Part shown: piece after piece, positions 15,276 through 38,818 of the stretch | Layout: each line of letters opens with the position of its first letter | Numbering within the stretch: position 1 is the first letter of the stretch | Assembly: GCA_016219105.1 (NCBI GenBank) | Contig: JACRCI010000075.1 | Span: forward strand, 1-43,087 | Length of the DNA stretch: 43,087 nucleotides | Source: Deltaproteobacteria bacterium | Lineage (GTDB): Bacteria > Desulfobacterota > GWC2-55-46 > DRQE01 | Reading direction: 5' to 3' | Program-made: the position numbers and the translations under genes | The notes under the pieces: model-generated | What the model was told of the DNA's origin: nothing | Databases searched by the model: none | Seen by the model: only the letters and a program-made list of their open reading frames with translations

Positions 15276-15757
15276 TTTTCAAGGCCCTTGTCCCCAATCG
15301 TCCTGTCAGCCGTCCGCACTGGCCAGCCAGCCGTCTTTGACGGCCAACCAGCCGTCCTCGACGGCTTGACGCGTAGATTCGCAATCCTGTCAATCACATT
15401 TTTCAGATTCAATACATCGGCCCGCCGACCGTCCGCGACGGCCAACCAGCCGGCCTTGCCGGCCTGACCTTCTTTGCCATTGGGACGTCCGTGGTTCTCG
15501 AATATCGAGCCGTCCTCGATCTTGGAGAGATAGGTTATGGAATCCGGGGTGACGCCCACCACCAGGTATTGCCCGGCCACGTCCACGACCGCGATGGTTT
15601 TTTTCGGGCCGAGCGCTCCGGCGGTAACAACCCTTATGAGATTGCGTTGCCCCTGCATGCGCGCGCCGAAGAACCTCAAATAGACATAGGCCGCTCCCCA
15701 TATCATCACTATCACCAGGAACATCCCGCCTATGAGTTTTTCAATCATGCCCGCCAT
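15272..15757 (-). CDS. fliO: Flagellar protein FliO with repeat-derived C-terminal tail
   Basis: Single TM plus FliO-like basic domain, between fliN and fliP; tail NGKEGQAGKAGWLAVADG...SRTAGWPSKTAGWPVRTAD. Confidence 0.8.
   Translation of the reverse strand: MAGMIEKLIGGMFLVIVMIWGAAYVYLRFFGARMQGQRNLIRVVTAGALGPKKTIAVVDVAGQYLVVGVTPDSITYLSKIEDGSIFENHGRPNGKEGQAGKAGWLAVADGRRADVLNLKNVIDRIANLRVKPSRTAGWPSKTAGWPVRTADRTIGDKGLEK
15307..15369 (+). repeat. Three tandem 21-bp hairpin repeat units (in fliO)
   Basis: cagccgtccgcactggccagc / cagccgtctttgacggccaac / cagccgtcctcgacggcttga. Confidence 0.9.
15426..15467 (+). repeat. Two tandem 21-bp hairpin repeat units (in fliO)
   Basis: cgaccgtccgcgacggccaac / cagccggccttgccggcctga. 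Confidence 0.9.
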
Positions 15758-15792
15758 AACGCCAAAACCCCCTGCCGTGGAGCATCTCCCTG

Positions 15793-16185
15793 CTACTTCT
15801 TAAGCTGCCTTATCCTTTCAACCGGACTCACTATGTCGGTGAGCCTCACCCCGAACTTCTCGTTGACCACGACAACCTCGCCCCTCGCTATCAGCCTGTC
15901 GTTGACCAGTATCTCCATCGGCTCGCCGGCGAGCTTGTCGAGTTCCACGACCGAACCCTGGCCGAGCTGCAGCAGATCGTTTATAACCATCCTCGTCCTG
16001 CCGAGTTCCACCGAGATCGTTATCGGGATGTCGAGGATGCGGTCCATGTTTTCGCTCATCTCCCCAACCTGGGTCTTCGGCCCCTTGATCTCGTTGAAGC
16101 TCGCGGGAGCCGGCGAGGCCGGAGTGTTGGCCGTCGAGACCGCGCCCGCTTTTTTCTGACTATCCGCCTTTACGTCGGTTGCCAT
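15793..16185 (-). CDS. fliN: Flagellar motor switch protein FliN
   Basis: DIPITISVELGRTRMVINDLLQLGQGSVVELDKLAGEPMEILVNDRLIARGEVVVVNEKFGVRLTDIVS. Confidence 0.96.
   Translation of the reverse strand: MATDVKADSQKKAGAVSTANTPASPAPASFNEIKGPKTQVGEMSENMDRILDIPITISVELGRTRMVINDLLQLGQGSVVELDKLAGEPMEILVNDRLIARGEVVVVNEKFGVRLTDIVSPVERIRQLKK
16112..16137 (-). repeat. Hairpin repeat copy in the fliN N-terminal linker
   Basis: ggcgaggccggagtgttggccgtcgag; 19 of 22 positions match ggcgaggccggctggttggccg. Confidence 0.65.
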
Positions 16186-16189
16186 AGGA

Positions 16190-17176
16190 TCACTCCCCCT
16201 CCTTTCCCGCCTGTCCCGTTATCTGGACGGCGTAATGCCCCTCGGACATCCCCGGGCTTCCCAGAAGTTTGGGCACGCCCTCCACGTTGACCGTCAGCGG
16301 ATCGGATACCTTCCTGTCCAGCCTGATGATATCCCCCGCGTTCAGATTCAAAAAATCCTCGATCGTCACCCTTGCCCTCCCCATTTCGCACGACACAAGG
16401 AGGGGCGCCTTCCTTATCTCCTCCTCGAACCTCGAAAGCCATCTCCTGTCGACCTCGGTCCTGTCGCTCTGATAGCCGGCGTATAGTTTTTCCTTTATGG
16501 GTTCAACGGTGGAGTACGGGATGCATACGTGCATGCTGCTGGTGGCCGTCTCAATCTCTACCCTGAACGTGGAAACTATTACTATCTCTGTCGGCACGAC
16601 CACGTTGGCGAACTGGGGGTTTATCTCGGAGCGGCTGTATACGAAATCCACAGGGGAGACCGGGTGCCACGAGGACTTCATGTCCGAGAACACGATATCG
16701 GCGATCCTCCGTATGACCTTCTGTTCCAGGGCCGTGAACTCCCGGCCCTCAACCTTTGTGTGGTATTTCCCGCCGCCCCCGAAATAGTTGTCAACCATGA
16801 GGAAGATGAGGTTCGCGTCAAGGACAAGCACGCTTGAACCTCGAAGCGGCGGCAGCTGGAATATGTTAAGGCTTGCCGGGAATGGCGTATTCTTCATGAA
16901 CTCGCCGTACTTCATCATCTTGATCCCCTCGACGCTGACGTCCACGACCTTCCTTACGAAATTAAAGAGCGAGATCCTGATCGACCTGCAAAACCGCTCA
17001 TTGATGATCTCCATGGCGGGCATCCTGCCCCTTACGACCCTCTCCTGGCTGGCGAGGTCAAACTGCCTGACCCCTGAGGCCTCCGTGGATTTGTCGCTCT
17101 CGGTCTCTATGCCGCCGGTCGCCACCCCCCTCATCAAGGCGTCAATTTCCTCCTGACTCAAAACCCTCTCGGCCAT
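16190..17176 (-). CDS. fliM: Flagellar motor switch protein FliM
   Basis: MAERVLSQEEIDALMRGV N-terminal motif and SpoA-like C-terminus. Confidence 0.97.
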   Translation of the reverse strand: MAERVLSQEEIDALMRGVATGGIETESDKSTEASGVRQFDLASQERVVRGRMPAMEIINERFCRSIRISLFNFVRKVVDVSVEGIKMMKYGEFMKNTPFPASLNIFQLPPLRGSSVLVLDANLIFLMVDNYFGGGGKYHTKVEGREFTALEQKVIRRIADIVFSDMKSSWHPVSPVDFVYSRSEINPQFANVVVPTEIVIVSTFRVEIETATSSMHVCIPYSTVEPIKEKLYAGYQSDRTEVDRRWLSRFEEEIRKAPLLVSCEMGRARVTIEDFLNLNAGDIIRLDRKVSDPLTVNVEGVPKLLGSPGMSEGHYAVQITGQAGKEGE

Positions 17177-17180
17177 CTCT

Positions 17181-17369
17181 CTAAACCCCTTTCGCGCCGT
17201 CCTCTACGGCCAACCAGCCGTCCTCGACGGCTGACGAAAACCGCATCTCCCGCGCCCTGTCCTCAGAGTCCGGGGGCATGGACCCCTCGACCCTTTCACC
17301 GGCAAGGCCGGCTGGATGGAGGGAGACGACCTTAAGGTTTGGGTGCATATTGAGAGCGTTAAAGCACAT
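17181..17369 (-). CDS. Possible 62-aa ORF between fliL and fliM, largely repeat-derived
   Basis: Fills the fliL-fliM gap; contains PAGLAGERVEG and SSAVEDGWLAVEDG repeat peptides. Coding status uncertain. Confidence 0.35.
   Translation of the reverse strand: MCFNALNMHPNLKVVSLHPAGLAGERVEGSMPPDSEDRAREMRFSSAVEDGWLAVEDGAKGV
17194..17235 (+). repeat. Two tandem 21-bp hairpin repeat units
   Basis: gcgccgtcctctacggccaac / cagccgtcctcgacggctgac. Confidence 0.9.
17301..17319 (-). repeat. Single hairpin repeat copy, opposite orientation
   Basis: ggcaaggccggctggatgg. Confidence 0.75.
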
Positions 17370-17396
17370 AATGACCTCGCCTGCGGGTTATCCGGC

Positions 17397-17969
17397 CTAC
17401 TGGATCACGAACTCCGTGAAATACACGGCCTTTACCTTCCCCTTCGCCAATATCTGGCTGACCCTCGCGGCAATCTCATCGCGCAGCTGATACTTGCCCT
17501 GGACAGTACCGACGTCCGAATAGCCCTTGCTGCTTAAAAGGATGATGATCGAGTCCCTTATCTGGGACGTCTTCGCCTTCGCCTCATCCTGCGCCGGGCC
17601 GTCTATCTCGAGGTCTATCGAAACCCTGAGATACCTCGTGCCGGTTGCGTCCTGCAGGTTGACGACAAATGGGTCCATGGTAAGGGCCGCGGACGGCGCC
17701 TCCTTCTCCCCCTTTTTGTGATCCACTTTCTCTTCCTTCTTGCCTTCGGCCTCCGTGCCGTGTTTGGACTCCTTGGCCGCGGCCGTCTCTTCGGCAACGG
17801 TCTCTTCGACGGCCTTGCCCGCCGACATCTTTTTCCATACAAAAAAACCGCCGCCTAAAACAGTTAGGGCCGCGGCCCCTATGATTATGAGCTTCAGTTT
17901 GCCCTTCGGCGGTTTTGCCTGAGGGGTCGTAGCATCATCCTTTTTCTTTTTTGCCTCTTCTTCAGCCAT
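17397..17969 (-). CDS. fliL: Flagellar basal body-associated protein FliL
   Basis: Single N-terminal TM; FVVNLQDATGTRYLRVSIDLEI; upstream of fliM. Confidence 0.93.
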   Translation of the reverse strand: MAEEEAKKKKDDATTPQAKPPKGKLKLIIIGAAALTVLGGGFFVWKKMSAGKAVEETVAEETAAAKESKHGTEAEGKKEEKVDHKKGEKEAPSAALTMDPFVVNLQDATGTRYLRVSIDLEIDGPAQDEAKAKTSQIRDSIIILLSSKGYSDVGTVQGKYQLRDEIAARVSQILAKGKVKAVYFTEFVIQ

Positions 17970-18018
17970 ATAACCCCCTTTGCCTCCTCATCCGGAAAAA
18001 CAATAAATAGGTTATACT

Positions 18019-18033
18019 GCAACAGCTGTGCCA
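18019..18033 (-). promoter_or_regulatory. sigma-54 promoter upstream of fliL
   Basis: Minus strand TGGCACA-GCTG-TTGC. Confidence 0.85.
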
Positions 18034-18040
18034 ACCGGCC

Positions 18041-18145
18041 GGCAAGGCCGGCTGGTTGACCGGCAAGGCCGGCTGGTTGACCGGCGAGGCCGGCTGGTTG
18101 ACCGGCGAGGCCGGCTGGTTGACCGGCGAGGCCGGCTGGTTGGAA
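18041..18145 (-). repeat. Tandem array of five 21-bp hairpin repeat units
   Basis: 2 x ggcaaggccggctggttgacc, then 2 x ggcgaggccggctggttgacc, then ggcgaggccggctggttggaa; a partial copy at about 18164-18184. Confidence 0.97.
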
Positions 18146-18198
18146 AAGGCCGCGGATGGGAGTTGGCCGGCGAGGCCGATTGGTGAAACAGCCTGAAT

Positions 18199-18294
18199 CC
18201 CCGGCCTTTACATGCCCGGGGGAATGAACCTCCCCAAAGCCAAGGCTTTGGGGTGTAATGAAACATCGTTCCAAACAACCCGAAGCAAGCTTCG
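18199..18294 (-). mobile_element. Possible remnant of an IS200/IS605-type element end (hairpins only)
   Basis: Three short hairpins: CCCCGG..CCGGGG (18199-18221), perfect 10-bp stem CCCCAAAGCC-AA-GGCTTTGGGG (18232-18253), CGAAGC-AA-GCTTCG (18281-18294). No transposase found. Confidence 0.35.
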
Positions 18295-18430
18295 AGGAAT
18301 CAAACCAGCATCGCGGGCTTGAAAAGTCGTCAAAGCCATGATTTCAAGCGTCATAACTATGACGGTGGCCATAGGGGACGACTGCTTGGCCGTCAAGACC
18401 GGACGGGCATTGGTGCATAAAACCAACGAA

Positions 18431-18472
18431 TAAAAAAAACAAAGGCCGGGGACGCTGTGATGGCCCCCGGCC
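18431..18472 (-). terminator. Rho-independent terminator downstream of flgE
   Basis: Minus strand GGCCGGGG-loop-CCCCGGCC followed by TTTGTTTTTTTT. Confidence 0.85.
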
Positions 18473-18502
18473 CGTCTGCTCCAACCTGCTGGTGTAACGC
18501 TT

Positions 18503-20149
18503 TTACCTCTTGATGTTCACCAACTCGTTCAATATCTCGTCGGTTGTCGTTATCACCTTCGAGTTTGCCTGAAAACCCCTCTGCGCGGATATCATTTTTA
18601 CGAACTCCTCGGCTATATCCACGGTTGAAAGCTCAAGGGCGTTGGAATGGATGCCGCCCCTGCCCGATGAGTTCGGCGCTCCCACAAGCGGCTGACCGGA
18701 GCCGGTGGACTCGGCATAGAGGTTCTTGCCCATAAGCGCCAGGGCGGTGGAGTTGGGAAAATCCGCGAGCACCACCTCCCCGAGCGTCCTCGTCCTTCCG
18801 TTGGAGAATATGCCGGTGAGCACCCCGTCCGTGTCCGCCGATACCCCCTGCAGGCTTCCCGAGGCGTAACCGTCCTGCTGCTGGTTATACACGGCGAAAC
18901 CCTGCCCGTACTGGGTAACGCCGTCAATGCCCGTGCCGCCTGAAACGATGCTCGTGCCGAAGCCGAAGCCTATTATCTGGTCCTGGGTCGCGCCGCCGGA
19001 GAAATCGAACCCGCCGGTCGGATAGGTCGTCGAGGTCGTCGAATCCAGCGCGCCGTTGGTATTGAACGTAAGGGTGCCCTGCGCCTGCGTCTGAGCGGTG
19101 GAACTTGAAGAGTCTGCCGCATCCACCACCGCGAACCACTCCCACGCGTTGCCGGAGGCCGCGGCCGTATCCTTCCTGAAATATACGTTTATCTGGTGGC
19201 TGTTGCCGAGCGAATCGTAGACCGTGACGGCCGTTGAAAAATTCGCCGTGGCGCTCGGAAAGGCGACGTCGAAGGCGCCCGCGGCCGCGTCGCTTATCAC
19301 GCTCGAACCGACCGCTACGGCGTCGTCGGCCGTAAAGCCCAGGACGGCCTCGGCCGTCGTGCCGGGGTCCGTCGCCCACTTCACGTTAAGCGGATTTACG
19401 TTGCCGTTGTCGTTGGTGATATTGAACTTGCCGGTCGCGCCGTCGTAGGTGACGGTATAGGTGTCCGTGCTGCCGTTTGTCGCCTCCAGGGCCGTCTCCA
19501 GCGCCGCGGCCACCTGCGCGCCGGTATACGGGGTGTTGGCCCTCAGCCCGCCGTCCGCTATGAGCTGAAGCGTTATGTCCGGGCCTCCGGCATTGAATAC
19601 TATGTCGTCGGCGGCGTTCGTGAACACAAATCCCTTTATCTCGGCGTCCGACTGGAGGTTCGCGGTGAAATCAACCTGGGCCGTCGAATTGGGCGGTATC
19701 GCGGCCGAGGAGAGCTGCAAATCCCCTACCGTGCTCGTCAGCGCGCCCATGGAATCGGCCTGGTATCCCCGGAGGACGTAGCCCTCGGGGTTCGTGATGT
19801 AGCCGTCCTTATTCACGTTGAACTGTCCGGCCCTCGAGTAATAATTCGCGCCGGTCGAGTCTCTGAGGACGAAAAACCCGTCGCCGTCAACGGCCATGTC
19901 CAGACCGTTGCCCGTTGTCTCGAACGCGCCCTGGGTAAAAAGGGGAGTGATGCTGCTGAGCGTTACGCCGAGGCCGACCTGCGCCGAGCCGGAAACCCCG
20001 TTCAGCGTCTGGCTCAGGATGTCGGAAAACGACGCCCTGCTCGCCTTGAAGCCCACGGTGTTCATATTCGCGATATTATTGCCTATGACGCTTAAGGCGG
20101 TCATATTGGCGTTCATACCGCTTACGCCCGTAAATAACGATGTCAACAT
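18503..20149 (-). CDS. flgE: Flagellar hook protein FlgE
   Basis: MLTSLFTGVSGMNANMTALSVIGNNIANMNTVGFK start at 20149 with AAAGGAGG RBS; C-terminal VDIAEEFVKMISAQRGFQANSKVITTTDEIL. Confidence 0.95.
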   Translation of the reverse strand: MLTSLFTGVSGMNANMTALSVIGNNIANMNTVGFKASRASFSDILSQTLNGVSGSAQVGLGVTLSSITPLFTQGAFETTGNGLDMAVDGDGFFVLRDSTGANYYSRAGQFNVNKDGYITNPEGYVLRGYQADSMGALTSTVGDLQLSSAAIPPNSTAQVDFTANLQSDAEIKGFVFTNAADDIVFNAGGPDITLQLIADGGLRANTPYTGAQVAAALETALEATNGSTDTYTVTYDGATGKFNITNDNGNVNPLNVKWATDPGTTAEAVLGFTADDAVAVGSSVISDAAAGAFDVAFPSATANFSTAVTVYDSLGNSHQINVYFRKDTAAASGNAWEWFAVVDAADSSSSTAQTQAQGTLTFNTNGALDSTTSTTYPTGGFDFSGGATQDQIIGFGFGTSIVSGGTGIDGVTQYGQGFAVYNQQQDGYASGSLQGVSADTDGVLTGIFSNGRTRTLGEVVLADFPNSTALALMGKNLYAESTGSGQPLVGAPNSSGRGGIHSNALELSTVDIAEEFVKMISAQRGFQANSKVITTTDEILNELVNIKR

Positions 20150-20216
20150 TGAGTGCCTCCTTTCGGTTCGCCCGCTTGCGGGCCTGTGATAAAGCCGTTT
20201 ATACCGGCCCTGCCGG

Positions 20217-20906
20217 TCACCTGTTCCAAACCTCCACCACGTCGGACATCCTGACCTTTTCCGTTCCCACGATGAGATATGGGACGCCCTCCTCATACAC
20301 AACGCCGCTTGCCAACCCGGCCATGACCGTGCCCGCTGGCACGCCCTGTCCGTCCCCGGAGGCGGCTGAAACCTTGAACGTATACTGCCCGGGTGGAAGG
20401 GAATTCCCGTTCGAGTCCTTGCCATCCCACAGGGCCGAGTTGTAGCCCGCGGCTTTTGCGCCCTCCTCCATGGTCCTTACCGCGTTACCGCCCCCGTTAT
20501 AGACCGTGACCGTAACCTTGGCCGCGCCGGACGCGAGGTGATAACCCATTGACGCGGGCGCTAAACCGTTGAGGTTTACGCTGTTCCCGTATGCCCTTAT
20601 CTCTTTTCCGATAAGCCATGTGGCGTAGTAGTTGCTCATGGACGCCATGTCCGCGGCGAACGTCTTGAGATTCGTACCCATGTTGGTTATCCCCTCGAGT
20701 GTGCTGAACTGCGCGAGCTGCGCGATAAATTCCGCGTTGTCCAGCGGCTCGAGCGGGTTCTGGTTCTTAAGCTGGGTCACAAGGAGCTTCAGGAAGTCCT
20801 CCTTGCCGAGAGACTTCGCCGTTGGATTGGCGGACGGCCCGCCAGCGCCGGCCGGCACTCCGGCCCTGCCCACGGTCTGAGTCACCATATCGCCCATACC
20901 CATCAC
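20217..20906 (-). CDS. flgD: Hook capping protein FlgD
   Basis: LGKEDFLKLLVTQLKNQNPLEPLDNAEFIAQLAQFSTLEGI. Confidence 0.95.
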   Translation of the reverse strand: MMGMGDMVTQTVGRAGVPAGAGGPSANPTAKSLGKEDFLKLLVTQLKNQNPLEPLDNAEFIAQLAQFSTLEGITNMGTNLKTFAADMASMSNYYATWLIGKEIRAYGNSVNLNGLAPASMGYHLASGAAKVTVTVYNGGGNAVRTMEEGAKAAGYNSALWDGKDSNGNSLPPGQYTFKVSAASGDGQGVPAGTVMAGLASGVVYEEGVPYLIVGTEKVRMSDVVEVWNR

Positions 20907-20918
20907 CTCCCTTCAGGT

Positions 20919-21353: not shown

Positions 21354-21367
21354 CCGCGCCCCTGTCC

Positions 21368-22663
21368 CTAAACGAATATGTCCACGATACTGTCCGAGCC
21401 TTCCGCGGAAGACCACCACCCGCCGGGGGAAGCGACCTCATCCACCGCGGCGTTGCCGTTGCTTTTTCCGGACGGCGCGTCAAACCCCTCCCTGTAGCCG
21501 GAGGATCTGTCGCCGAGAAAAACGGTTAGTCCATCCACCGTAAGCCCCTGTTGCATGAGCGCGTGCTTGAGTCCCTGGAGATTGGCCTCAATTACCTGTT
21601 TTACGACCGGATGCTCGGTGGCTATCTCGGCCCTGACCATATTGTCCTTCACTATGATGTCTATCTTGAGGTGCCCGAGCGAGGGCGGGTCGAGACTTAT
21701 GGTAGCCTTGCCCAGACCGTCCTTTAAAAACACCCCGTTGAGATGACCCCTTACCTGCTCTACGAGATAATCGGCGAAGACATTGCCTCCGGCAATACCG
21801 GACGTGCCGGCAACGAACGCGGTTCCACCCGTTGGCTGGCTATTGGCTCCGCCTTGAAGAGAAGCGGCGAAGAGCGGCTTGCCCTGCGAAGGGTCGGTGT
21901 CCATCGTCTTGAAATCGCGGATTTCCCCGCCCAATGACAGGTTGTCGCCCGCGAGGGACTTGCGGCCGGACCCGCCGTCCACGACGGCTGAGTTCCCCTG
22001 CGTGTCTCCCGCGGATAATGCCTTGGAGACCGCCTCCATGAGCCCGTCCGCCGAACCTTCCGGCAAACCGACTGAGGGAAAACTATCCGGCACCTCGCCG
22101 TCCTGGCCGTTGGGGACGGAGTGCCGGCCGGTCTTTAGTCGCGTTCCGGATTCCTCCGTTGGTTCGGATGCCCCGTGCCCGGAAATCCCGGATAAAAGAC
22201 CCTGTAACGTAATCCCTTCCTCTGCCCCCGATGGCATTACCTGAAACGAAGGAGTTTGGACCCAGGTTTCTGAAGGCAGGGCCGGCCCGCCAGACGACTT
22301 CGACGGGTTTATAACGCCTTCCATATCCCCAGACTGCCCTGAGAACAAGGAGGATGATTGGGGTAAGGACACAACCCCGGATTTTACGGAAACCTCCCCT
22401 GAAACCTCTCCGGACGCGCCGTCGAGGCCGGCTGGTTGGCCGTCGAGGCCAAGAACGGACGGCGGAGACATCAATAGCGCAAGCAGGTCATTATTCATGC
22501 GCGCCCTGAGTTCTTTGCCGAAATCATCCTCATCGTCCCGCGCTCCATCGGGCCGCATTTCATCGCCGTCGGCGCCGGAAGCAAGGGGTCTTAAATGGTC
22601 CACGCCGTTTGTGATGCTGTCTTCGGCCGTAAAGGCCGCTGAAACCGCTTCCATCCCGTTCAT
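21368..22663 (-). CDS. fliK: Flagellar hook-length control protein FliK
   Basis: C-terminal LGKATISLDPPSLGHLKIDIIVKDNMVRAEIATEHPVVKQVIEANLQGLKHALMQQGL; position before flgD. Confidence 0.9.
   Translation of the reverse strand: MNGMEAVSAAFTAEDSITNGVDHLRPLASGADGDEMRPDGARDDEDDFGKELRARMNNDLLALLMSPPSVLGLDGQPAGLDGASGEVSGEVSVKSGVVSLPQSSSLFSGQSGDMEGVINPSKSSGGPALPSETWVQTPSFQVMPSGAEEGITLQGLLSGISGHGASEPTEESGTRLKTGRHSVPNGQDGEVPDSFPSVGLPEGSADGLMEAVSKALSAGDTQGNSAVVDGGSGRKSLAGDNLSLGGEIRDFKTMDTDPSQGKPLFAASLQGGANSQPTGGTAFVAGTSGIAGGNVFADYLVEQVRGHLNGVFLKDGLGKATISLDPPSLGHLKIDIIVKDNMVRAEIATEHPVVKQVIEANLQGLKHALMQQGLTVDGLTVFLGDRSSGYREGFDAPSGKSNGNAAVDEVASPGGWWSSAEGSDSIVDIFV
22421..22450 (-). repeat. Hairpin repeat copy within fliK
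   Basis: gtcgaggccggctggttggccgtcgaggcc, encoding GLDGQPAGLDG. Confidence 0.9.
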
Positions 22664-22693
22664 AATGGTCTCCGTCCGGTCTTGAACCCCATG

Positions 22694-23236: not shown

Positions 23237-23272
23237 GGTCGCCCCCTTTTAAATAAAATATCACCGCCGCTC

Positions 23273-28560: not shown

Positions 28561-28581
28561 TTATAACCTCCGCTTATTATC

Positions 28582-28992: not shown

Positions 28993-28995
28993 GGC

Positions 28996-29397: not shown

Positions 29398-29421
29398 AAT
29401 GCGCCTCCTCGTTTATTTTAA

Positions 29422-29436
29422 GCAAAAGCCGTGCCA
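29422..29436 (-). promoter_or_regulatory. sigma-54 promoter upstream of flgB
   Basis: Minus strand TGGCACG-GCTT-TTGC. Confidence 0.92.
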
Positions 29437-29437
29437 T

Positions 29438-29462
29438 GCTGTCGTAGACGGCTAAATGGCCG
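29438..29462 (+). repeat. Hairpin repeat copy abutting the flgB sigma-54 promoter
   Basis: gctgtcgtagacggctaaatggccg. Confidence 0.65.
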
Positions 29463-29517
29463 TTTTTCCCCTCGCCGCAACAACGCCGCAATCGCAGGGA
29501 AGACAAATATTGCCCGG

Positions 29518-30867
29518 TCAAAGGGCAATTATTTCCTCTCCCCGCGTTCCGGACGAATATTCCTTGAGCTTATTCCTGAGCGTCCTTATGCTTATGCCCA
29601 GGAGCCTTGCCGCCCTTGTCCTGTTGCCGGAGGTATCCCTGAGGGCCTTGCGGATCAACTCCTTTTCCATGTCCCTCAGCGTGCCGGCCTCGTGCCCGGC
29701 GGCCGCCGGCGGCAAGGACACGGCTTCCTCCCCGTAGAATATGTCCTCCGGGCAAATCTCCGCGCCCTTACAGAGAAGCACCGCCCTTTCCATGACGTTT
29801 TCAAGTTCCCTTACGTTCCCCTTCCATCGGCGGGCCTTTAAAAGCTCACGGGCGTCCTCTCTTACGCCGCCTATCGCTTTACCGTCCCTCTTTGAAAAAT
29901 CCTTCAAAAAGAAATCCGTTAGAAACGGTATGTCCTCCGGCCTTTCCCTGAGCGGCGGAAGGGTTATCGGGAACACGTTCAGCCGGTAGAAAAGGTCTTC
30001 CCTGAACCTGCCTCCGGCGACCTCCTTCCTCAGGTCCCTGTTGGTCGTCGCTATGACCCTTATGTCCACCGGCACGGGAGAACCCCCGCCGAGCCTGTCT
30101 ATCTCGCGTTCCTGCAGCACCCTCAGGAGTTTCGCCTGAAGCTGCAGCCCCATCTCCCCGACCTCGTCAAGGAGGAGCGTGCCGGTCGTCGCCATCTCGA
30201 ACCTGCCCCTGCGGGCTTTTGTGGCGCCGGAGAACGCCCCTTTTTCATGGCCGAAGAGCTCGCTCTCCAGAAGCCCCTCCGGTATGGCGGCGCAGTTTAT
30301 GGCCATAAACGGCCTGTCCCTCCTCAGGCTCCCGGCGTGGATGAACCGGGCCAGGAGTTCCTTGCCCGTGCCGCTCTCGCCGGTTACGAGCACCGTGGCC
30401 GATGAAGCGGCTACGGCGCGCGCAATCGCCAATATATCCAACATCCTCGGGTTGCGCGTAACTATCCCGAGGTCCTTTTCGCAATATTCCGGGCCGACGA
30501 CCTTTTTAAGAGCCGCCTCGATTATGTCGGGAGAGAACGGCTTGAGGATGTAATCCCTTGCCCCTTCCTTCATGGCCTCTATCGCGCTTTCTATGGTGCC
30601 GAACGCGGTCATCATCAACACGGGCAGTCCGGGTTCGATCTTTTTTACGGAACGCAGCAGTTCCAGGCCGTTCATCCCCGGCATCCTGACGTCCGTTATG
30701 AGGGCGCTGAATCTTTCGCCGGCGAGGCCGGCTGGTTGGCCGGCGAGCCTGGCTATGGCGTCCTCGGCGCTTTCGGCCGCCGTAACCTCATAGCCCCTTC
30801 GTTTTAAGACCTCATAAAGGGCCGTCCTCATCTGGGCCTCATCGTCAACGACCAGCACTCTATGCAT
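29518..30867 (-). CDS. sigma-54-dependent NtrC-family activator (FlrC/FleR-like) with repeat insertion in the receiver
   Basis: REC; GESGTGKELLARFIHAGS; GAFSGATKARRGRFEMA; Fis-type HTH; IARLAGQPAGLAGERFSALITDVRMPG. Confidence 0.93.
   Translation of the reverse strand: MHRVLVVDDEAQMRTALYEVLKRRGYEVTAAESAEDAIARLAGQPAGLAGERFSALITDVRMPGMNGLELLRSVKKIEPGLPVLMMTAFGTIESAIEAMKEGARDYILKPFSPDIIEAALKKVVGPEYCEKDLGIVTRNPRMLDILAIARAVAASSATVLVTGESGTGKELLARFIHAGSLRRDRPFMAINCAAIPEGLLESELFGHEKGAFSGATKARRGRFEMATTGTLLLDEVGEMGLQLQAKLLRVLQEREIDRLGGGSPVPVDIRVIATTNRDLRKEVAGGRFREDLFYRLNVFPITLPPLRERPEDIPFLTDFFLKDFSKRDGKAIGGVREDARELLKARRWKGNVRELENVMERAVLLCKGAEICPEDIFYGEEAVSLPPAAAGHEAGTLRDMEKELIRKALRDTSGNRTRAARLLGISIRTLRNKLKEYSSGTRGEEIIAL
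30719..30752 (-). repeat. Hairpin repeat copy within the FlrC-like receiver domain
   Basis: ccggcgaggccggctggttggccggcgagcctgg. Confidence 0.92.
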
Positions 30868-32113
30868 GGGCCTCCCCCTCCGGAAGGATTATCTCAAAGG
30901 TGGCGCCTTCCCCGCCGTTTCCCATGGGGCTTTCCGCCTCTATGACGCCGCCATGGGCCTTGACTATGTTGTTTACGATAGTCAGTCCCAACCCGGTGCC
31001 CTTTGATTTTGTCGTAAAAAACGGGTCAAAGACCTTGTCAAGGCACTCCCTGGGTATGCCGCAGCCGTTATCAGATACGAGTATGTGGACAGAATCGCTA
31101 TGCTTAAGCGCCGTAATGGACACGGCGCCGCCTTCCCTTCCCGTCAAGGCCTCCACGCCGTTCATAACGAGGTTGGAAAGGGCCTGCTTCATCAGCTCCC
31201 TGTCAACGAAGATATATGCCGCCGGCGCCTCGCAGCGCGTCTCTATCCGGACGCTATCCTGGATCAGGAAACCGCACATGCCCGCGGTCTCATCCAACAG
31301 CTCTTTTACAAACACTATCGTCTTGAACGGCCTTGAATTGTTCGCGAAAAGGAGCATATTGGAAAGCGTGTTATTGAGGGTCTTGACCGCGTGGACTATC
31401 TCCTTTGAAAGCCTCTGCCTCGCCTCGTCCCCGGAGAGTTCCTCGCTGAGGAGCGAGGCGAAAAGGTCAATTGAGCCCAGCGGGTTTCTTATCTGGTGCG
31501 CGAGGCTGGCCGCCATCTCGCCCATGGCCGCGAGCCTTTTGTCCCTCTGGGCCGATTCCCTGAGCCTTTTTACCTCGGATACGTCCTTCAGCACGATAAG
31601 CCGGCCGGTCGAGCGGCCGCAAAGGTTTTCAAGCGCCGTTGAGTTCAGCGTCACGACCCTCTTTCTGCCGTCCCTGCCGGTTATGACGGTCTCGGTCTCA
31701 ACCTCTGACAGCCTGCCGTAAATAACCCCGCCGTCAATATCCCCACCCGGACCACGCGCCCGCCCATCCTGCGGCGCTACGCCGGCGTCCTCGAGGTTGC
31801 GGCCTTTAAGCCCTCCGGCCGTTGAGCCGAGTATGGCGCATGCCGCCGAATTCACCGTCTCTATCCTGCCGGATACCCCCGTGACTATGATGCCGACCGG
31901 CAGGCCCTCGACGATGCCCGTCAGGTAGTTCGTCTTTTCGGCGAGCTCCATGTTCAGTTCCTCGACCCTCTTTTCAAGGCCTTTGTAATAGCCCTCAAGG
32001 CTCATGGAGGCCTTTCTGAACGTGTCGAAGGCCTCGATGAGGAGGTTCACATCCTTGCCGGCTGGCTGGCCGTCGTGGACGGCTGATTGGCCTGCTGTTT
32101 GTACGGCTGCCAT
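30860..32113 (-). CDS. PAS-domain histidine kinase (FlrB/FleS-like)
   Basis: ATG at 32113 preceded by GGAGGTAGATCT; MAAVQTAGQSAVHDGQPAGKDVN then PAS, MAASLAHQIRNPLGSID, GTGLGLTIVNNI. Confidence 0.88.
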   Translation of the reverse strand: MAAVQTAGQSAVHDGQPAGKDVNLLIEAFDTFRKASMSLEGYYKGLEKRVEELNMELAEKTNYLTGIVEGLPVGIIVTGVSGRIETVNSAACAILGSTAGGLKGRNLEDAGVAPQDGRARGPGGDIDGGVIYGRLSEVETETVITGRDGRKRVVTLNSTALENLCGRSTGRLIVLKDVSEVKRLRESAQRDKRLAAMGEMAASLAHQIRNPLGSIDLFASLLSEELSGDEARQRLSKEIVHAVKTLNNTLSNMLLFANNSRPFKTIVFVKELLDETAGMCGFLIQDSVRIETRCEAPAAYIFVDRELMKQALSNLVMNGVEALTGREGGAVSITALKHSDSVHILVSDNGCGIPRECLDKVFDPFFTTKSKGTGLGLTIVNNIVKAHGGVIEAESPMGNGGEGATFEIILPEGEAHA

Positions 32114-34272
32114 AGATCTACCTCCTTTAACCTTTCGTCCGCGAGACGACCCATATAACCATCCCTGTCCTCTTTCACAACCTCCTGCCACGCGCTGACG
32201 GCCTCTTCCACATTGCCTGTAAAGAAGTTTGCTTCGCCCATCCTGTACCTGACCCTTATTTTTTCCTCCTTGTCCGCGTCCGCGCCTCCAATGCCTCTGC
32301 CGTAGGAATCGAGGGAATCCTTCCATCTCTTCATCGAATAATACGCGTCCCCGAGGCCCAAAAACGCCTTTGCCCCCATCGTTGCGGCGTCCTTGACGGC
32401 CGACCAGCCATCCTTGATGGATAACCTTTTTATTACGTCGAGGTAGATATCAACGGCCCTTTCCTCTTCACCCCGCAGGACGTGCGCGTGCGCCTTTTTA
32501 AGGTATATCTCGGGTTTGTCCATGCCCTTCAATGCCTCTGAATAGGCCGATAGGGCCTCCCCGTATTCCCCTTTTCTTAAATGGAGGTCCCCGAGAAGGC
32601 GAAAGGCATCGGCCAAAAGGGCCTGCTCCTTACGGCCAACCAGCCCGCCTTGCGGGCTATCCAGCCGTCCCGGACGGTCGGACGGTCTTACTGCCCTTAA
32701 TGCGTCCGCTGCCCCGGCCCCGTCGCCCTTCATTATGCGGCATCTGGCAAGGCCGATGGATGCTCCGGCATCCCCCCATCCATCAAGCCGGCCCTGCCGT
32801 CCTCGACGGCCAACCAGCCCGCCTTGCGGGTTCATGAGGCGCCCGTAGATTGCCGCGGCCTCATCCGCAAGTCCGGCGTTCAAGAAACTTTCCGCGGCCA
32901 TGAAGAGTATCCTTTTATCCTTTATGAATTCCCTGTTGCCGTAATAAACCTCCATGACCCCGGTATAATCCTTCCTTTCATGGGCGCCGGATATGATCAA
33001 ATAAAGCGTGTCGTCGAGGACCGCCTTAACCTCCGCTTTGCCGGGGCCCGGACGGGACAGGAATTCCTTTGAAAAAGCGAGCGTGTCCCGGTAAAGGCCC
33101 TCCGCGCGGGAGAGATTTACGAGATACACGAGGGCCGCGTCCCTGACCTCGGAGGGAAGCGGCATGGACATCATGTCCTTTAAGATATTTACGGATTCGG
33201 CCCTTTTCTCATTCATATATAACTCGGAGAGGGCCATTTTCCCCATGACAGGCGCGTCGCCGGGAAGAGGCGAGGCAAAGGTCTTCTTTTCTTTCCCGTC
33301 TTCAGTCTCTTTCACGTCTTCAGTCAGCCGTTTGTAAAACAACTCGCCGTCTTTTTCCTTACCCTCCATGACGGCTATATCGCCGAGCCTCAGGAAGATA
33401 TATTGCAGAAGCCCCCCTTCTCCGTACTGGGCCGAAAGCCTTTGAAACGCGTCCTTCGCCTTTTCTATTTCGCCCGCCCTTAGATAGTTCTCGGCGCGGG
33501 AAAACCCGTATGCCGGATGCAAATAGATGTATCCGTCAATCTTGCGGAATACGTCCTCAGCGTCGGCATGGTCGCCGGATTCATATAAGGTCACCGCATA
33601 ACCGGCCAGGGCTTCCTCCCACTCGGCCGGGTCGCTGGATTCCCTGTATACGCCGTAAAACCTGTCGGACGTCTCTTCGAGGAGCGCAATATCACCGCCC
33701 TCGACGGTCTTCATTAAATTCACGAAGGCCGTTCTTAACATGGCCTTTCTGTAAAAAACACCTCCACCATCGCGGCGTACGCTTATCCTCGCGTAGTTGC
33801 CCAAAGCCTCCGGGTAGAACCCCAGACCCTCGTATATAAGGCCAATAAGGTATATGGCCTCATCTTTTAAAAGGCCGGCCTCGCCCGCGCCCCGTCCGTC
33901 AAGGACGGCTGACTGGGCAGATACCTCCCTCAGGATTTTAAGGGCGACCTGCCCCCGGCCGGCCTTCATCATCTGAACGGCCTTTATTATCGCGGGGTTT
34001 CCGGAAGTATGCCCTTCGAGCAGTTTGCCGGTGCCGGATTTGAGCATCATCACCCCAACCCTTTTTCTGTAATATTCCCTCCATAAGAACCCTGTGCCGC
34101 GGACAGTCCGGGAAGGCTGGTCGGCCGTCGTGGACGGCTGGCGGGCCGTCTGACCGAAGACCATTGAGTGAGTCAGCGCAAAAAAGAACGTCAACAGAAA
34201 AAACCTGGCCATAGTGGACGGCCGGTTAGCCATCGAGCATGGCTGATTAGCGGAAAATTTCTTCATTATCAT
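32047..34272 (-). CDS. Secreted/periplasmic TPR-repeat protein with multiple repeat insertions (start uncertain: 34272, 34266 or 34213)
   Basis: TPR-like helices; signal-peptide-like MARFFLLTFFFALTHSMVFGQ. Confidence 0.8.
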   Translation of the reverse strand: MIMKKFSANQPCSMANRPSTMARFFLLTFFFALTHSMVFGQTARQPSTTADQPSRTVRGTGFLWREYYRKRVGVMMLKSGTGKLLEGHTSGNPAIIKAVQMMKAGRGQVALKILREVSAQSAVLDGRGAGEAGLLKDEAIYLIGLIYEGLGFYPEALGNYARISVRRDGGGVFYRKAMLRTAFVNLMKTVEGGDIALLEETSDRFYGVYRESSDPAEWEEALAGYAVTLYESGDHADAEDVFRKIDGYIYLHPAYGFSRAENYLRAGEIEKAKDAFQRLSAQYGEGGLLQYIFLRLGDIAVMEGKEKDGELFYKRLTEDVKETEDGKEKKTFASPLPGDAPVMGKMALSELYMNEKRAESVNILKDMMSMPLPSEVRDAALVYLVNLSRAEGLYRDTLAFSKEFLSRPGPGKAEVKAVLDDTLYLIISGAHERKDYTGVMEVYYGNREFIKDKRILFMAAESFLNAGLADEAAAIYGRLMNPQGGLVGRRGRQGRLDGWGDAGASIGLARCRIMKGDGAGAADALRAVRPSDRPGRLDSPQGGLVGRKEQALLADAFRLLGDLHLRKGEYGEALSAYSEALKGMDKPEIYLKKAHAHVLRGEEERAVDIYLDVIKRLSIKDGWSAVKDAATMGAKAFLGLGDAYYSMKRWKDSLDSYGRGIGGADADKEEKIRVRYRMGEANFFTGNVEEAVSAWQEVVKEDRDGYMGRLADERLKEVDLWQPYKQQANQPSTTASQPARM
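32053..32110 (-). repeat. Hairpin repeat cluster in the TPR/kinase gene overlap
   Basis: ccttgccggctggctggccgtcgtggacggctgattggcctgctgtttgtacggctgc. Confidence 0.9.
32384..32425 (+). repeat. Two tandem 21-bp hairpin repeat units
   Basis: gcggcgtccttgacggccgac / cagccatccttgatggataac. Confidence 0.9.
32620..32682 (+). repeat. Three tandem 21-bp hairpin repeat units
   Basis: ggcctgctccttacggccaac / cagcccgccttgcgggctatc / cagccgtcccggacggtcgga. Confidence 0.88.
32781..32835 (+). repeat. Two to three tandem hairpin repeat units
   Basis: catcaagccggcc + ctgccgtcctcgacggccaac + cagcccgccttgcgggttcat. Confidence 0.88.
33872..33920 (-). repeat. Degenerate hairpin repeat copies
   Basis: ggccggcctcgcccgcgccccgtccgtcaaggacggctgactggg. 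Confidence 0.7.
34105..34156 (-). repeat. Tandem hairpin repeats downstream of the signal-peptide coding region
   Basis: agtccgggaaggctggtcggc / cgtcgtggacggctggcgggc / cgtctgaccg. Confidence 0.85.
34208..34249 (-). repeat. Two tandem 21-bp hairpin repeat units upstream of the signal-peptide core
   Basis: gccatagtggacggccggtta / gccatcgagcatggctgatta. Confidence 0.88.
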
Positions 34273-34285
34273 AATAATGATAATT

Positions 34286-34300
34286 GCAAAGGCCGTGCCA
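34286..34300 (-). promoter_or_regulatory. sigma-54 promoter upstream of the TPR-kinase-activator operon
   Basis: Minus strand TGGCACG-GCCT-TTGC. Confidence 0.92.
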
Positions 34301-34566
34301 TGGGCTGGTCGAAGGGAATGTATATCCCATCGTCCGGACTTTTTCCGGCCATTACTTGCCGGGGGAAGACAGGGTAATTCCGTAAATAATCGGATTGTTT
34401 CCCCGGTCACTTCCTGACTACGACGCAATCGTAATGTCGAGAAAAGGTTTTATACAGGGGTATGTATTGCCGTGGAATGGGGCGGTTTGTCAAAAATATG
34501 ACGGATTGGATGCGTACGTATTGACGGATTAAGATGGGGGGGATTCGGGTGACGGCCAAGTGGGGC

Positions 34567-35018
34567 TGTTGAAAAACCGTAAATAGCGTAGCCCTGAAAC
34601 AAGCCTGAAATAAATTCAGGCCATGGTTCAGGGCAGGCTCTGTAATGCTGAATTTATTAATCTGTCATGCTGAATTCATTAATCTGTCATGCTGAACTCG
34701 TTTCAGCATCTCGTACCCCGTATCAAGTACGGGGCAAGTTTAGACCCTGAAACAAGCCTGAAATAAATTCAGGCCATGGTTCAGCACAAGGTTCAGGGCA
34801 GGCTCTGTCATGCTGAATTCATTAATCTGTCATGCTGAATTTATTTCAGCATCTCGTACCCCGTATCAAGTACGGGGCAAGTTTAGACCCTGAAACAAGT
34901 TCAAGGTGACAAGCAGACCCTTAAACAATACTGAAACAAGCCTGAAATAAATTCAGAGCCTGCCCCGAACTTGTTTCGGGGGTGACGGAATACCTGCTGA
35001 AACAGGACTTTTTCAACA
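34567..35018. repeat. Composite intergenic repeat with inverted ends
   Basis: TGTTGAAAAA (34567-34576) and TTTTTCAACA (35009-35018) bracket two near-identical ~150-bp direct repeats, each with CCCCGTAtcaagTACGGGG hairpins and several ctgaa(c/t)...ttcag palindromes. Confidence 0.85.
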
Positions 35019-35045
35019 ACCTCCACGTTAAGGTCCACGACCCAG

Positions 35046-37952
35046 TTATGCCTCGCCGTTAAGCCTTTTTATGTATTCCGATATCCTTTCCTGAAATTCC
35101 GGGATGGTGAAGGGTTTTGCTATGAACGGGTTGCCGGCGTCTTTTAAAAACTCCTGCGTGGCGTCGCTTGCCGTGTCCCCTGACATAAAGACCACCCTCT
35201 TCGCCAGACCGGGTTTGCGCCGTTTGAGTTCCTGATAAAAAAGCTTTCCGCCCATGCCCGCCATCTTGAGGTCGGTTATTATCAACTCGTATTCCCTCCT
35301 CGAAAGCATGTCCAGGGCGTCCTCGGCCACATTTGCCGTCTCCACCTCGAAACCGAGGTCTTTGCACGCCTCCTTTACGATCTCGCGGACAACGAACTCG
35401 TCGTCTAAAACGAGGATTGCGTTGCCGCCCTTTTGCGTTGCCGGGGCAACAGGCTCCTCAGGCTCCGCGGCCCGGCCGGCGCCGGAGGCGGCCGGTCGGA
35501 CCATCGGCATCTCGATTGTAAAAACGCTCCCCTCGCCCTCTTTGCTGTCAACCGCGATTGTCCCGCCGTGGTCTTTTATTATGCCGTAGGATATGCTCAG
35601 GCCGAGGCCAGTGCCTTTGCCGCCCTTTGTCGTGAAAAACGGGGTGAATATCTCCTTGCGGTTCTCCGCGCTTATCCCGTGGCCCGTGTCCCTGAACTCG
35701 ATTATTACGCGGCCGTCTCCGGCCCGCGTGGCAACGGAGATACACCTCTCTCCTTCCTTCTCCTTCATGGCGTCATGGCTGTTGTTTATAAGATTGATAA
35801 GCACCTGCTTTATCTGGAAGGGGTCCACCATGGTCTCGGGCAGGGCCCTGTCCAGCGCCGTGCTTACTTTTATATTATCCGCCTTGAGCTGGTAATCCAT
35901 CAAGGAGAAGGTCTCTTCCACCAGCCGGCTTATGTCGGTAGAGACCTTCTCGGCAACGCGGCCTCTTGAGAAAGTCAAAAGGTCCTGTATTATCTTCTTG
36001 CATCTGAGGCTCTCGTTATATATTATCCGGAGCCTCTCCTTTTTCGCCTCGTCGGTCTCCTTGCCCATGAGTATCCTCGAAAAGCCCATTATGCCCGTAA
36101 GGGGGTTGTTGAGCTCGTGGGCGACCCCGGCCGTAAGATGCCCTATGGATGAAAGCCTCTCGGAGTGCAAAAGGCTCTCCCTCAATTTCGTCTCCTCGGT
36201 CACGTCCCTTATGTATTCTATTATATGCGTAAGCGTCCCGTTATCGTCCTTGAGCGGGAACGTGAACCTCTGAAAAACCCTTTTGTCGTGGCTGTGCGGT
36301 TTAACCTCGGAATGAGGCACGGGGTCCATGATCGTCTGCCGCACGATGCACCCGTCCGGGACGCTGGTCCAATCGCACACCATCCTGTAGCATTTCTTCC
36401 CTATGACGTCCTCGGCCTTCAACCCCCTGTCCCTCAGAAAACTTTGGTTCACCTCTATGATGGTGTAGTCCCTGTCGAGGAGCAGTATGTAGTCCTTTAT
36501 CCCGTCCACGATGGTGCCGAGCCTCTGCTGGAGGCTGGATATCTCTTTATTCTGATGCGCCAGCTTCCGGGTCCTCTGCTCCATCTCCTCGTTCAGCACC
36601 CTGAGTTCCTCGTTCGCGCACTGCAGTTCCTCGGCCTGGCTCTGCGTCTCCTCAAGGGACACCTCCAGTTCCTCGTTCGCGTTCCCCAGCCTCTCGTTCA
36701 GCCCGGCCAGTTCGCTGTTCTTCCCCTCTATCTCGTTAAGATACCCGGTCCTCTCCGAGTCCCTCACCCTGAGTTCCCTCGTCATCTGCTCGAAGGTGCG
36801 GATTAAAACGCCGAACTCCTCCGCGGAATTCTCCGGGATGTCAGCCGCACCGTCATCTTCCTGCCCTTTGGCGAACCTGAGGGTCTTTCTCCTGAGGAGC
36901 GTTATGGGTTTTGAAATGGAATACGTGGCCAGGATAGCGAAGGCGCCGGCGAGGATTATACCCATAACCCCGGCGGCGACGATAATCCGTGAGTTCCTCC
37001 GCTGGAGCTCCCAGAACCGGCTTTTAAGGACGTTGCTCGATATGGAGCCTATGACCCTTCCCCTGCCGTCCTCTATGGGGTCAACGGCGGAGATATACTT
37101 CTGTCCCCCTATTTCGATATCCCCGCGCCAGCCCTTTTTTGCGTTCAGTTCGGAAACCACGGCGGCCGGCAGGCTCCAGCCCGAATACCTCCTGCCCTTC
37201 CCGTCTTTTATGTCCGTCGCCACGGACACGCCGTTCATCATGATGGCGGTGAACGTGTCCGGTATCTTTTCCGCCAGGGTGTCCGGGATGAACGTGTCGT
37301 TATTGATGAGGTCGCCGATCACGATGGCCCCCACCACCGCTCCGTCCTTTCCGAAGACCGGGGTGGACACCATCAGCATCAGACCGTCTTCAACTGCCGT
37401 TGCGTCCGCGGCCGGTATACGCGCCGCTTCCGCCAGCGCCCCGCCCTCTTTTAACAGCGCCTCTCTCGGCACGACCTCCGTGGATATGATGGCGTCCCCT
37501 GAATCAATGGCCCTTGCGACGAGGCTATTCACGTCAAAGACGTCGCCTGCCGAGGCGCTTGCGAGCCGCGCGATGACCCTCTTGTTTTTATCCACCACCA
37601 GCCACAGGTCCACATAGGGTCTGAAGTTCCTCCAGTTAGCCATGTTTTCCCTCAGGCGCCTTCTGTCGCCGGCCGCTATTTCGTGATGGAAAAACTCGGA
37701 GGCCGCGGCCTGCAGCATCCCGTAGCGCCTCTGCTCGCCTCTGGCGTAGTACTGCGTCCATGCGAACTTGAGGTTCCGCTCCACCGTCTGACGGGCGTCC
37801 TCCATCAGCCTCTTATCCATCATCTCGTATGACCAGACGAGCAGCAGCACCATCGGGACGATGGCGACGAAGAGGAACGACACGGCCATCTTGGTCCTCA
37901 GCCTCGTGCCGTAGAAGACCCTGTTGATAATTTTTTTAATGAACCGCTTCAT
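35046..37952 (-). CDS. Membrane hybrid histidine kinase (sensor, HAMP, PAS, HisKA, HATPase, REC)
   Basis: Two TMs, SIGHLTAGVAHELNNPLTGIMGFSRIL, GTGLGLSISYGI, C-terminal ILVLDDEFVVREIV. Confidence 0.92.
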   Translation of the reverse strand: MKRFIKKIINRVFYGTRLRTKMAVSFLFVAIVPMVLLLVWSYEMMDKRLMEDARQTVERNLKFAWTQYYARGEQRRYGMLQAAASEFFHHEIAAGDRRRLRENMANWRNFRPYVDLWLVVDKNKRVIARLASASAGDVFDVNSLVARAIDSGDAIISTEVVPREALLKEGGALAEAARIPAADATAVEDGLMLMVSTPVFGKDGAVVGAIVIGDLINNDTFIPDTLAEKIPDTFTAIMMNGVSVATDIKDGKGRRYSGWSLPAAVVSELNAKKGWRGDIEIGGQKYISAVDPIEDGRGRVIGSISSNVLKSRFWELQRRNSRIIVAAGVMGIILAGAFAILATYSISKPITLLRRKTLRFAKGQEDDGAADIPENSAEEFGVLIRTFEQMTRELRVRDSERTGYLNEIEGKNSELAGLNERLGNANEELEVSLEETQSQAEELQCANEELRVLNEEMEQRTRKLAHQNKEISSLQQRLGTIVDGIKDYILLLDRDYTIIEVNQSFLRDRGLKAEDVIGKKCYRMVCDWTSVPDGCIVRQTIMDPVPHSEVKPHSHDKRVFQRFTFPLKDDNGTLTHIIEYIRDVTEETKLRESLLHSERLSSIGHLTAGVAHELNNPLTGIMGFSRILMGKETDEAKKERLRIIYNESLRCKKIIQDLLTFSRGRVAEKVSTDISRLVEETFSLMDYQLKADNIKVSTALDRALPETMVDPFQIKQVLINLINNSHDAMKEKEGERCISVATRAGDGRVIIEFRDTGHGISAENRKEIFTPFFTTKGGKGTGLGLSISYGIIKDHGGTIAVDSKEGEGSVFTIEMPMVRPAASGAGRAAEPEEPVAPATQKGGNAILVLDDEFVVREIVKEACKDLGFEVETANVAEDALDMLSRREYELIITDLKMAGMGGKLFYQELKRRKPGLAKRVVFMSGDTASDATQEFLKDAGNPFIAKPFTIPEFQERISEYIKRLNGEA

Positions 37953-38818
37953 TCAGGCCCCGCCGATACCTTTCTATATACCCTCGCCCCGTCCGCGACC
38001 TCCGCGTACAAGGGCTGAAACGCCGGCGGCAGGTTCTCCGCCCTGCCCAGGACGAGCAGGCCCCCGGGCTTAAGCGCATAGTGGAGCTTCCGAAAGACGC
38101 TTCTCTGGAGCCTCTTTTCAAAATAGATGAACAGGTTCCTGCAAAAAAGCACGTCCACCCTATGTATCGGCGATTCCCCCACTATATCCAGCCCCCCGAA
38201 CCTGACCATGTCCCTGACGTCATACTTGACCCTGTAGCCCCTGTCCGTCTTTATGAAATACCTTTCCCTGAGCCCGCCTCCGACGTTCCGCATGACGTCT
38301 TCTCCATACATGGCCTTGCGGGCGAAGTCCAGCGCATCATCATCAATATCGGTTGCGAATATCCGCGCCTTGAGCGCCGCGTTGTGCCTTGAAGACTCCG
38401 CGAGGATAATCCCGAGGGAATAGGCCTCCTCCCCGGTTGCGCAGCCGCAACACCAGGCCCTCAATGGGCCGGTGAAGTAGAAGCCGTCGGCGAGGAGCCT
38501 CTCTATAAGCCCGAACACCTCGGGCTCCCTGAAGAACTCGCTTACCTTTATCGTAACGGTGGAAAGGAGTTCGCGGTATTCGGCCGGGTCAGAGGTCAAA
38601 AGCCTGAGATATTCCTCATAAGAGGCGATGCCGTGCGCGCTCAGTCTTTTTGAGATGCGGCGGGTCAGGCTGGTCTTTTTGTAACCGCGGAAATCGCATC
38701 CGCTTTCCCTGTAAAGCCTTTCAAGGAGTTCCGAAAGGCCATATCCCGCGGCTGGCTGGCCGGCGAGGCCGGCTGGCGGGATAGGGGAGGTGGCGATGGA
38801 AATTGCATCTTCAGACAT
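37949..38818 (-). CDS. CheR-type chemotaxis methyltransferase
   Basis: RAWCCGCATGEEAYSLGIIL; VLFCRNLFIYFEKRLQ. Confidence 0.93.
   Translation of the reverse strand: MSEDAISIATSPIPPAGLAGQPAAGYGLSELLERLYRESGCDFRGYKKTSLTRRISKRLSAHGIASYEEYLRLLTSDPAEYRELLSTVTIKVSEFFREPEVFGLIERLLADGFYFTGPLRAWCCGCATGEEAYSLGIILAESSRHNAALKARIFATDIDDDALDFARKAMYGEDVMRNVGGGLRERYFIKTDRGYRVKYDVRDMVRFGGLDIVGESPIHRVDVLFCRNLFIYFEKRLQRSVFRKLHYALKPGGLLVLGRAENLPPAFQPLYAEVADGARVYRKVSAGPE
38748..38780 (-). repeat. Hairpin repeat copy in the cheR N-terminal region
   Basis: gcggctggctggccggcgaggccggctggcggg, encoding PPAGLAGQPAAG. Confidence 0.88.

What the first reader, a model, noticed from the sequence alone, without database searches (positions are those of the whole stretch)
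15307..38781. Dispersed family of 21-bp hairpin repeats invading flagellar genes in-frame
A unit of about 21 bp, CAACCAGCCG(G/T)CCT(C/T)G(A/C)CGGC or its complement, occurs at about 20 places: fliO (two clusters), fliN, the fliL-fliM gap, upstream of fliL, fliK, upstream of flgB, the FlrC-like activator, the FlrB-like kinase, six clusters in or around the TPR gene, and cheR. Copies occur singly or in exact 21-bp tandem steps and in both orientations. Because 21 is a multiple of 3, the host genes stay open. Enterobacterial REP/BIME and Rickettsia palindromic elements are the nearest concepts I know. I do not recognise this family and saw no RAYT-like transposase here.
Basis: partly seen in the sequence, partly recalled or inferred. 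Interest (0 to 1): 0.88.

Follow-up and report, generated by a model that had tools for sequence, protein, structure and literature searches.

The report
Genome-wide 21-bp in-frame hairpin repeats
One bacterial species (name not known here) carries several hundred scattered copies of a 21-base hairpin unit that adds seven amino acids per copy to ordinary proteins; close relatives lack it and no known transposase for it was found, so it looks like one of the smallest self-spreading DNA units seen in a bacterium.

Summary
The 21-mer has 20 matches in the window against 0.02 expected, and 344 places in the 1.87-Mb genome against 1 for the reversed-pattern control. It is absent, beyond chance singletons, from 8 other genomes of the same family, from 394 other genomes of the phylum and from 84,980 GTDB species genomes. 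Array edges place the unit as 5'-CCNNCCAG+CCGKC-CTY-GMCGG-3', exactly 21 bp: an 8-nt tail plus a 13-nt stem-loop. Orthologues show clean insertions of 7 aa per unit (7, 14 and 28 aa for 1, 2 and 4 hairpins). Copies lie in both orientations and all phases; the phase giving Arg-rich peptides is rare (7 of 88). About 63% are inside genes. Tandem units keep one orientation and a 21-bp pitch, yet are no more alike than random copies, so arrays are not simple slippage products. No Y1/RAYT, RT, TnpB or DDE_Tnp_1 gene was found in the ~95%-complete genome. Best reading: a lineage-specific, non-autonomous hairpin element of the REP/SDR kind, probably inserted through a single-stranded intermediate beside existing units or GG^YY sites. 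The mover is unknown. New variant of a known kind.

The parts
15323..15364 (+). two 21-bp units in tandem, antisense in fliO (C-terminal extension)
15442..15462 (+). 21-bp unit in fliO, preceded by a degenerate unit at 15421-15441
16110..16130 (-). 21-bp unit (CAACAC-T variant) in the fliN N-terminal linker
17210..17230 (+). 21-bp unit between fliM and fliL, preceded by a degenerate unit at 17189-17209
17299..17319 (-). 21-bp unit (CCATCCAG tail) between fliM and fliL
18039..18143 (-). array of five 21-bp units upstream of fliL; a further degenerate hairpin at 18166-18180
22419..22439 (-). 21-bp unit with mixed stem (G..A) in fliK
30719..30739 (-). 21-bp unit in the receiver domain of the FlrC-like activator; exactly 7 aa absent from 7 orthologues
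32070..32090 (-). 21-bp unit at the TPR gene 3' end / flrB start
32379..32399 (+). 21-bp unit (degenerate, followed by another at 32400-32420), antisense in the TPR gene
32636..32677 (+). two units, the first with the compensated stem GCCCGC/GCGGGC, antisense in the TPR gene
32789..32830 (+). two units, antisense in the TPR gene
33896..33916 (-). 21-bp unit in the TPR gene
34125..34145 (-). 21-bp unit in or at the 5' end of the TPR gene
38760..38780 (-). 21-bp unit in the cheR N-terminus
7379..7399 (-). 21-bp unit in a histidine-kinase gene (outside the quoted range)

Best explanation
A lineage-specific family of non-autonomous mobile hairpin units, each exactly 21 bp: an 8-nt single-stranded tail CCNNCCAG followed by a 13-nt stem-loop CCGKC-CTY-GMCGG. 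Shown: the unit, its copy number, its restriction to this one genome among those searched, its insertion as 7 aa per unit into conserved genes, and same-orientation arrays at 21-bp pitch. Inferred: new units enter as single-stranded hairpins, weakly preferring GG^YY or the edge of an existing unit. They would be placed either by an unidentified trans-acting enzyme or by replication template switching, without a clear target-site duplication. Because 21 is a multiple of 3 and most units have few or no stops in any frame, insertions in loops, linkers and termini of proteins are tolerated and persist, while Arg-rich frames are purged. No host function is needed to explain the pattern.
For: Copy number. 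Restriction to one species. Unit edges read from array ends without selecting on the flanks: (last units conserved to position 13, G 97%, then C42/T33/A14/G11; first units conserved from -7). Insertion: FlrC, 7 aa missing in all 7 orthologues; homoserine dehydrogenase-like, TsaE-like and a TrmD-like protein, the last with 14 aa for two hairpins; further 7-aa cases; 28 aa for four hairpins. Array units recruited independently: (same stem 24/56 against 21.4+-3.4 expected). Stem maintained: (position 4/10 is G-C 33, T-A 24 and mixed only 6 of 63 when only the 5' side was selected) and rare alternative pairs. Hairpin as ssDNA. Phase bias 46:35:7 and genic share 88/140.
Against: No mobilising gene was found. 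No congeneric genome was available, so no precise empty site at DNA level was seen; insertion rests on protein alignments with relatives at about 40-73% identity. The 6-mers on either side show only a weak duplication-like signal (7 near-identical against 1.9 expected), so the insertion chemistry is unresolved. Present-day activity is untested.
Confidence: 0.66

Rival explanations
1. The units are REPs of an extinct or missed RAYT/REPtron: a Y1 transposase spread them and has since been lost, or lies in the ~5% of the genome not assembled.
For: A stem-loop with a one-sided tail, insertion without clear target-site duplication, and presence in genes and intergenic DNA all resemble REPs (PMC3733652). 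Y1_Tnp genes exist in other genera of the same family, e.g. G001, G005, G007.
Against: No Y1_Tnp in the own genome; no GTAG or CGTC tag; arrays are head-to-tail, whereas in many REP families units lie close together in opposite orientation (PMC3733652); the relatives that do have Y1_Tnp have no copies of this repeat.
Confidence: 0.2
2. Replication errors alone: template switching between hairpin-prone, GC-rich sites copies 21-bp units, and quasi-palindrome correction keeps the stems perfect. No enzyme is dedicated to it.
For: Stems nearly always self-consistent (T-A 72, G-C 60, other 8 of 140); host flanks left of some units resemble the unit's 3' half (FlrC, FliK); loci cluster along the genome (variance/mean 2.55); no transposase found.
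Against: Neighbouring loci and adjacent array units are no more alike than distant ones, which local copying would not predict; confined to one species although its relatives replicate by the same general machinery.
Confidence: 0.25
3. The repeat is a selected functional site (DNA-uptake sequence, nucleoid or gyrase site, or mRNA structure) rather than a mobile unit.
For: High density, near-perfect hairpins, enrichment outside genes (52 of 140 copies in about 11-12% of the sequence).
Against: Uptake and protein-binding sites arise mainly by point mutation, whereas these are length-adding 21-bp insertions; orientation and frame are unconstrained except by the peptide encoded.
Confidence: 0.06
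4. A protein-level repeat: a useful heptapeptide (QPAVLDG/QPAGLAG) duplicated for function.
For: Frame 0 sense gives recurrent AGLAG/AVLDG peptides.
Against: Both strands and all frames are used; many copies are intergenic; stem changes are paired at DNA level but non-synonymous (V/G with D/A).
Confidence: 0.01

Closest known systems
REP elements tagged GTAG or CGTC, including intragenic REPs (PMC3733652)
   Same: Short stem-loop with an unpaired tag on one side, dispersed, sometimes inside genes and encoding extra residues; CGTC REPs likewise lack a dedicated transposase.
   Different: Tag is CCNNCCAG; the unit is fixed at 21 bp; head-to-tail arrays of one orientation; about 63% of copies are genic, whereas REPs are mostly intergenic; no RAYT found in the genome.
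Rickettsia palindromic elements (RPE)
   Same: Palindromic units inserted in-frame into unrelated protein-coding genes.
   Different: RPEs are given as ~150 bp (PMC10969869); this unit is 21 bp, multi-frame, tandem, and far more numerous per genome.
Small dispersed repeats (SDR) of Nostoc-type cyanobacteria (Elhai et al. 2008; recalled from memory, the paper was not readable here)
   Same: About 21-27 nt, hairpin-capable, mobile, lineage-specific, some within genes (memory).
   Different: No sequence relation was tested; the phase-locked 21-bp arrays and the coding insertions documented here were not compared directly.
Hairpin elements of mitochondrial genomes (yeast mobile DNA family PMC4478555; sponge RHE PMC2800124)
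   Same: Short hairpin-forming repeats that multiply in a genome.
   Different: Organelle genomes; only titles and abstract openings were read here, not their unit sizes or coding status.

Membership tests
REP (GTAG/CGTC superfamilies) | 20-40 bp stem-loop | tested here: met
   21 bp, 5-bp stem, 3-nt loop
REP (GTAG/CGTC superfamilies) | Unpaired GTAG or CGTC tag at one end | tested here: not met
   Unpaired part is CCNNCCAG (CTGGNNGG on the other strand)
REP (GTAG/CGTC superfamilies) | Mostly intergenic | tested here: not met
   88 of 140 strict copies lie in called genes
REP with RAYT | Y1/HUH RAYT gene in the genome | tested here: not met
   0 matches to PF01797 in the own genome, ~95% complete
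Rickettsia palindromic element | In-frame insertion into unrelated genes | tested here: met
Rickettsia palindromic element | ~150-bp palindrome with a conserved peptide | tested here: not met
   21 bp, several frames and both strands
Cyanobacterial SDR | Homologous sequence or lineage | not tested
MITE | Terminal inverted repeats and target-site duplication derived from a DDE transposon | tested here: not met
   No internal sequence beyond the hairpin; duplication signal weak; no DDE_Tnp_1 in the genome; other DDE families not searched
DNA uptake sequence | Arises by substitution, not insertion | tested here: not met
   7n-aa insertions against orthologues

The most novel reading that the evidence does not exclude
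A 21-bp unit is itself the full mobile entity, inserted in a fixed register and orientation beside existing units through a hairpin single-strand route run by an enzyme family not yet linked to such repeats. That would make it about the smallest actively spreading element in a cellular genome and a general source of seven-residue protein insertions.
Probability: 0.3. Interest if true: 0.82.

Novelty: new variant of a known kind. Interest (0 to 1): 0.62.

Why it matters
If right, a 21-bp hairpin with no detectable transposase has filled a bacterial genome and lengthened many conserved proteins in steps of seven residues, purged only where the peptide is harmful. It gives a clean natural experiment on how tiny palindromic repeats multiply (enzyme or replication error) and on how selfish DNA becomes protein sequence, with exact unit edges and frame statistics ready for testing.

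Tried and rejected
Target-site duplication: tested at all small registers, only a weak 6-bp signal. Tandem slippage as the source of arrays: rejected for most arrays because adjacent units are not alike; the five-unit array upstream of fliL was left out of that test because its near-identical units look like true duplication. Local spread: loci are clustered but neighbours are not more similar. RAYT, RT, TnpB and DDE_Tnp_1 as movers: none found in the genome; other transposase families were not searched. Phage carriage: two viral-contig singletons only. Rfam: no match in the window. A similar family in the relative G006 (746 kb sampled): the top repeated words were one CRISPR-like repeat and tRNA-like words. 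Loose 2-mismatch core hits without tail include chance matches in conserved proteins such as FlhA, so counts rest on the stricter sets. The organism's name and phylum could not be established.

Full report
Observation. The repeat is present as described and far above chance: 20 matches with at most 3 mismatches in the window against 0.02 in shuffles, and 21-bp arrays found independently by Tandem Repeats Finder. In the genome to which the window belongs (1.87 Mb, 137 contigs, ~95% complete) there are 344 places with at most 2 mismatches, against 1 for the reversed pattern, and 420 exact copies of the stem-loop core, against 4. Copies are spread over dozens of contigs, so this is a genome property, not a feature of the flagellar cluster.

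Restriction. Eight other genomes of the same family, all from other genera, have none, and the few hits elsewhere in the order are one or two per genome and imperfect. In 395 genomes of the phylum only this one carries the family: 228 places with at most 1 mismatch, against one singleton elsewhere. In 84,980 GTDB genomes the exact 21-mer occurs only as 15 isolated singletons in scattered unrelated bacteria (records very near the own genome may be left out of that listing). In viral contigs there were two singletons. The closest species and strains were not available, so the true host range could be a genus.

Anatomy. I sampled 411 kb of the genome. The commonest words nearly all belong to this family. 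Hairpins follow one another at exactly 21 bp in the same orientation: 57 same-strand pairs at that distance, other spacings rare. To find the edges without selecting on the flanks, I took only the inner stem as seed and compared the last and first units of arrays with internal ones. Conservation stops after position 13 at the 3' side (G 97%, then C42/T33/A14/G11) and begins at -7 at the 5' side. The unit is therefore CCNNCCAG followed by CCGKC-CTY-GMCGG, exactly 21 bp, and as single-stranded DNA it folds into an 8-nt tail plus a 5-bp stem with a 3-nt loop. The base pair at positions 4/10 switches together (G-C 33, T-A 24, mixed 6 of 63) when copies are chosen by their 5' side only. Rarer double changes (GCCCGC/GCGGGC, GCCATC/GATGGC, GCCAGC/GCTGGC) are visible in the list of copies.

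Insertion. FlrC carries 7 residues in its receiver domain that all seven orthologues examined lack. Against relatives at about 40-73% identity, further conserved proteins show the same: 7 residues for single hairpins in a homoserine dehydrogenase-like protein (two orthologues), a TsaE-like protein, a HemW-like radical SAM protein and others, 14 residues for two hairpins in a TrmD-like protein, and 28 for four hairpins. Protein names here are my reading of the sequences, not database assignments. Of 24 places comparable, 23 carry extra residues, 7 of them exactly 7; the exception is a tail-less core match in flgC that is probably chance. Less conserved regions give ragged numbers, as expected from alignment uncertainty.

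Frame and place. Of 140 strict copies, 88 lie in called genes and 52 outside, while only about 11-12% of the sequence is non-coding, so copies are mostly genic but about threefold enriched outside genes. Inside genes both orientations occur; phases 0, 2 and 1 hold 46, 35 and 7 copies. The rare phase encodes Arg-rich peptides (RPRR, RRGR) and, in copies with a CTT or CCT loop, can contain a stop. Selection therefore probably acts on the peptide after insertion, and the element itself is a DNA entity. Gene calls were made with a simple codon model of my own and are approximate.

How it spreads. Adjacent units in arrays are no more alike than random pairs (same stem 24 of 56, expected 21.4+-3.4; identical 5, expected 3.1+-1.6). 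Ordinary tandem duplication is thus not the main source; units seem to be recruited next to existing units in register. Loci are overdispersed along the genome (variance/mean 2.55 per 10 kb), but neighbours are not more similar than distant copies. Host sequence left and right of arrays is weakly GG and YY, resembling the GG|CC junction between units. A target-site duplication is not established. These traits resemble hairpin-recognising single-strand insertion, but no Y1 transposase, reverse transcriptase, TnpB or DDE_Tnp_1 gene was detected, with the caveat of the ~5% unassembled. Replication template switching remains a serious rival.

Known kinds. Intragenic REPs and RPEs are established (PMC3733652; PMC10969869), so in-frame palindromic insertion is not new. 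This family fails the REP tag, the REP location and the RAYT tests, and it is much shorter than RPE. From memory, the nearest in size are the cyanobacterial small dispersed repeats. I file it as a new variant of a known kind.

Noticed in passing
window 34639-34696 and 34804-34845: Intergenic 22-bp tandem repeat TCTGTCATGCTGAATTCATTAA; similar sequence in L050 near 11336.
   Followed up: partly
window 43061-43076 and several loci such as L039 18-107, L041 5766-5824, L042 14208-14266: A second, intergenic repeat (GAGATTGCTTCGC...GCTCGCAATGACGGG) occurring as inverted pairs, in some cases near contig ends.
   Followed up: partly
L048 3271-5604: A transglutaminase-like gene carries about seven repeat units at several places, an unusually heavy load for one protein.
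   Followed up: no
L024-L025 and L055-L094 (relative G006): The commonest repeated word family in G006 is a CRISPR-like repeat (ATTGTAACCGACCAATGTCTGCGCACAACTCACAAC), about 10-11 copies.
   Followed up: no
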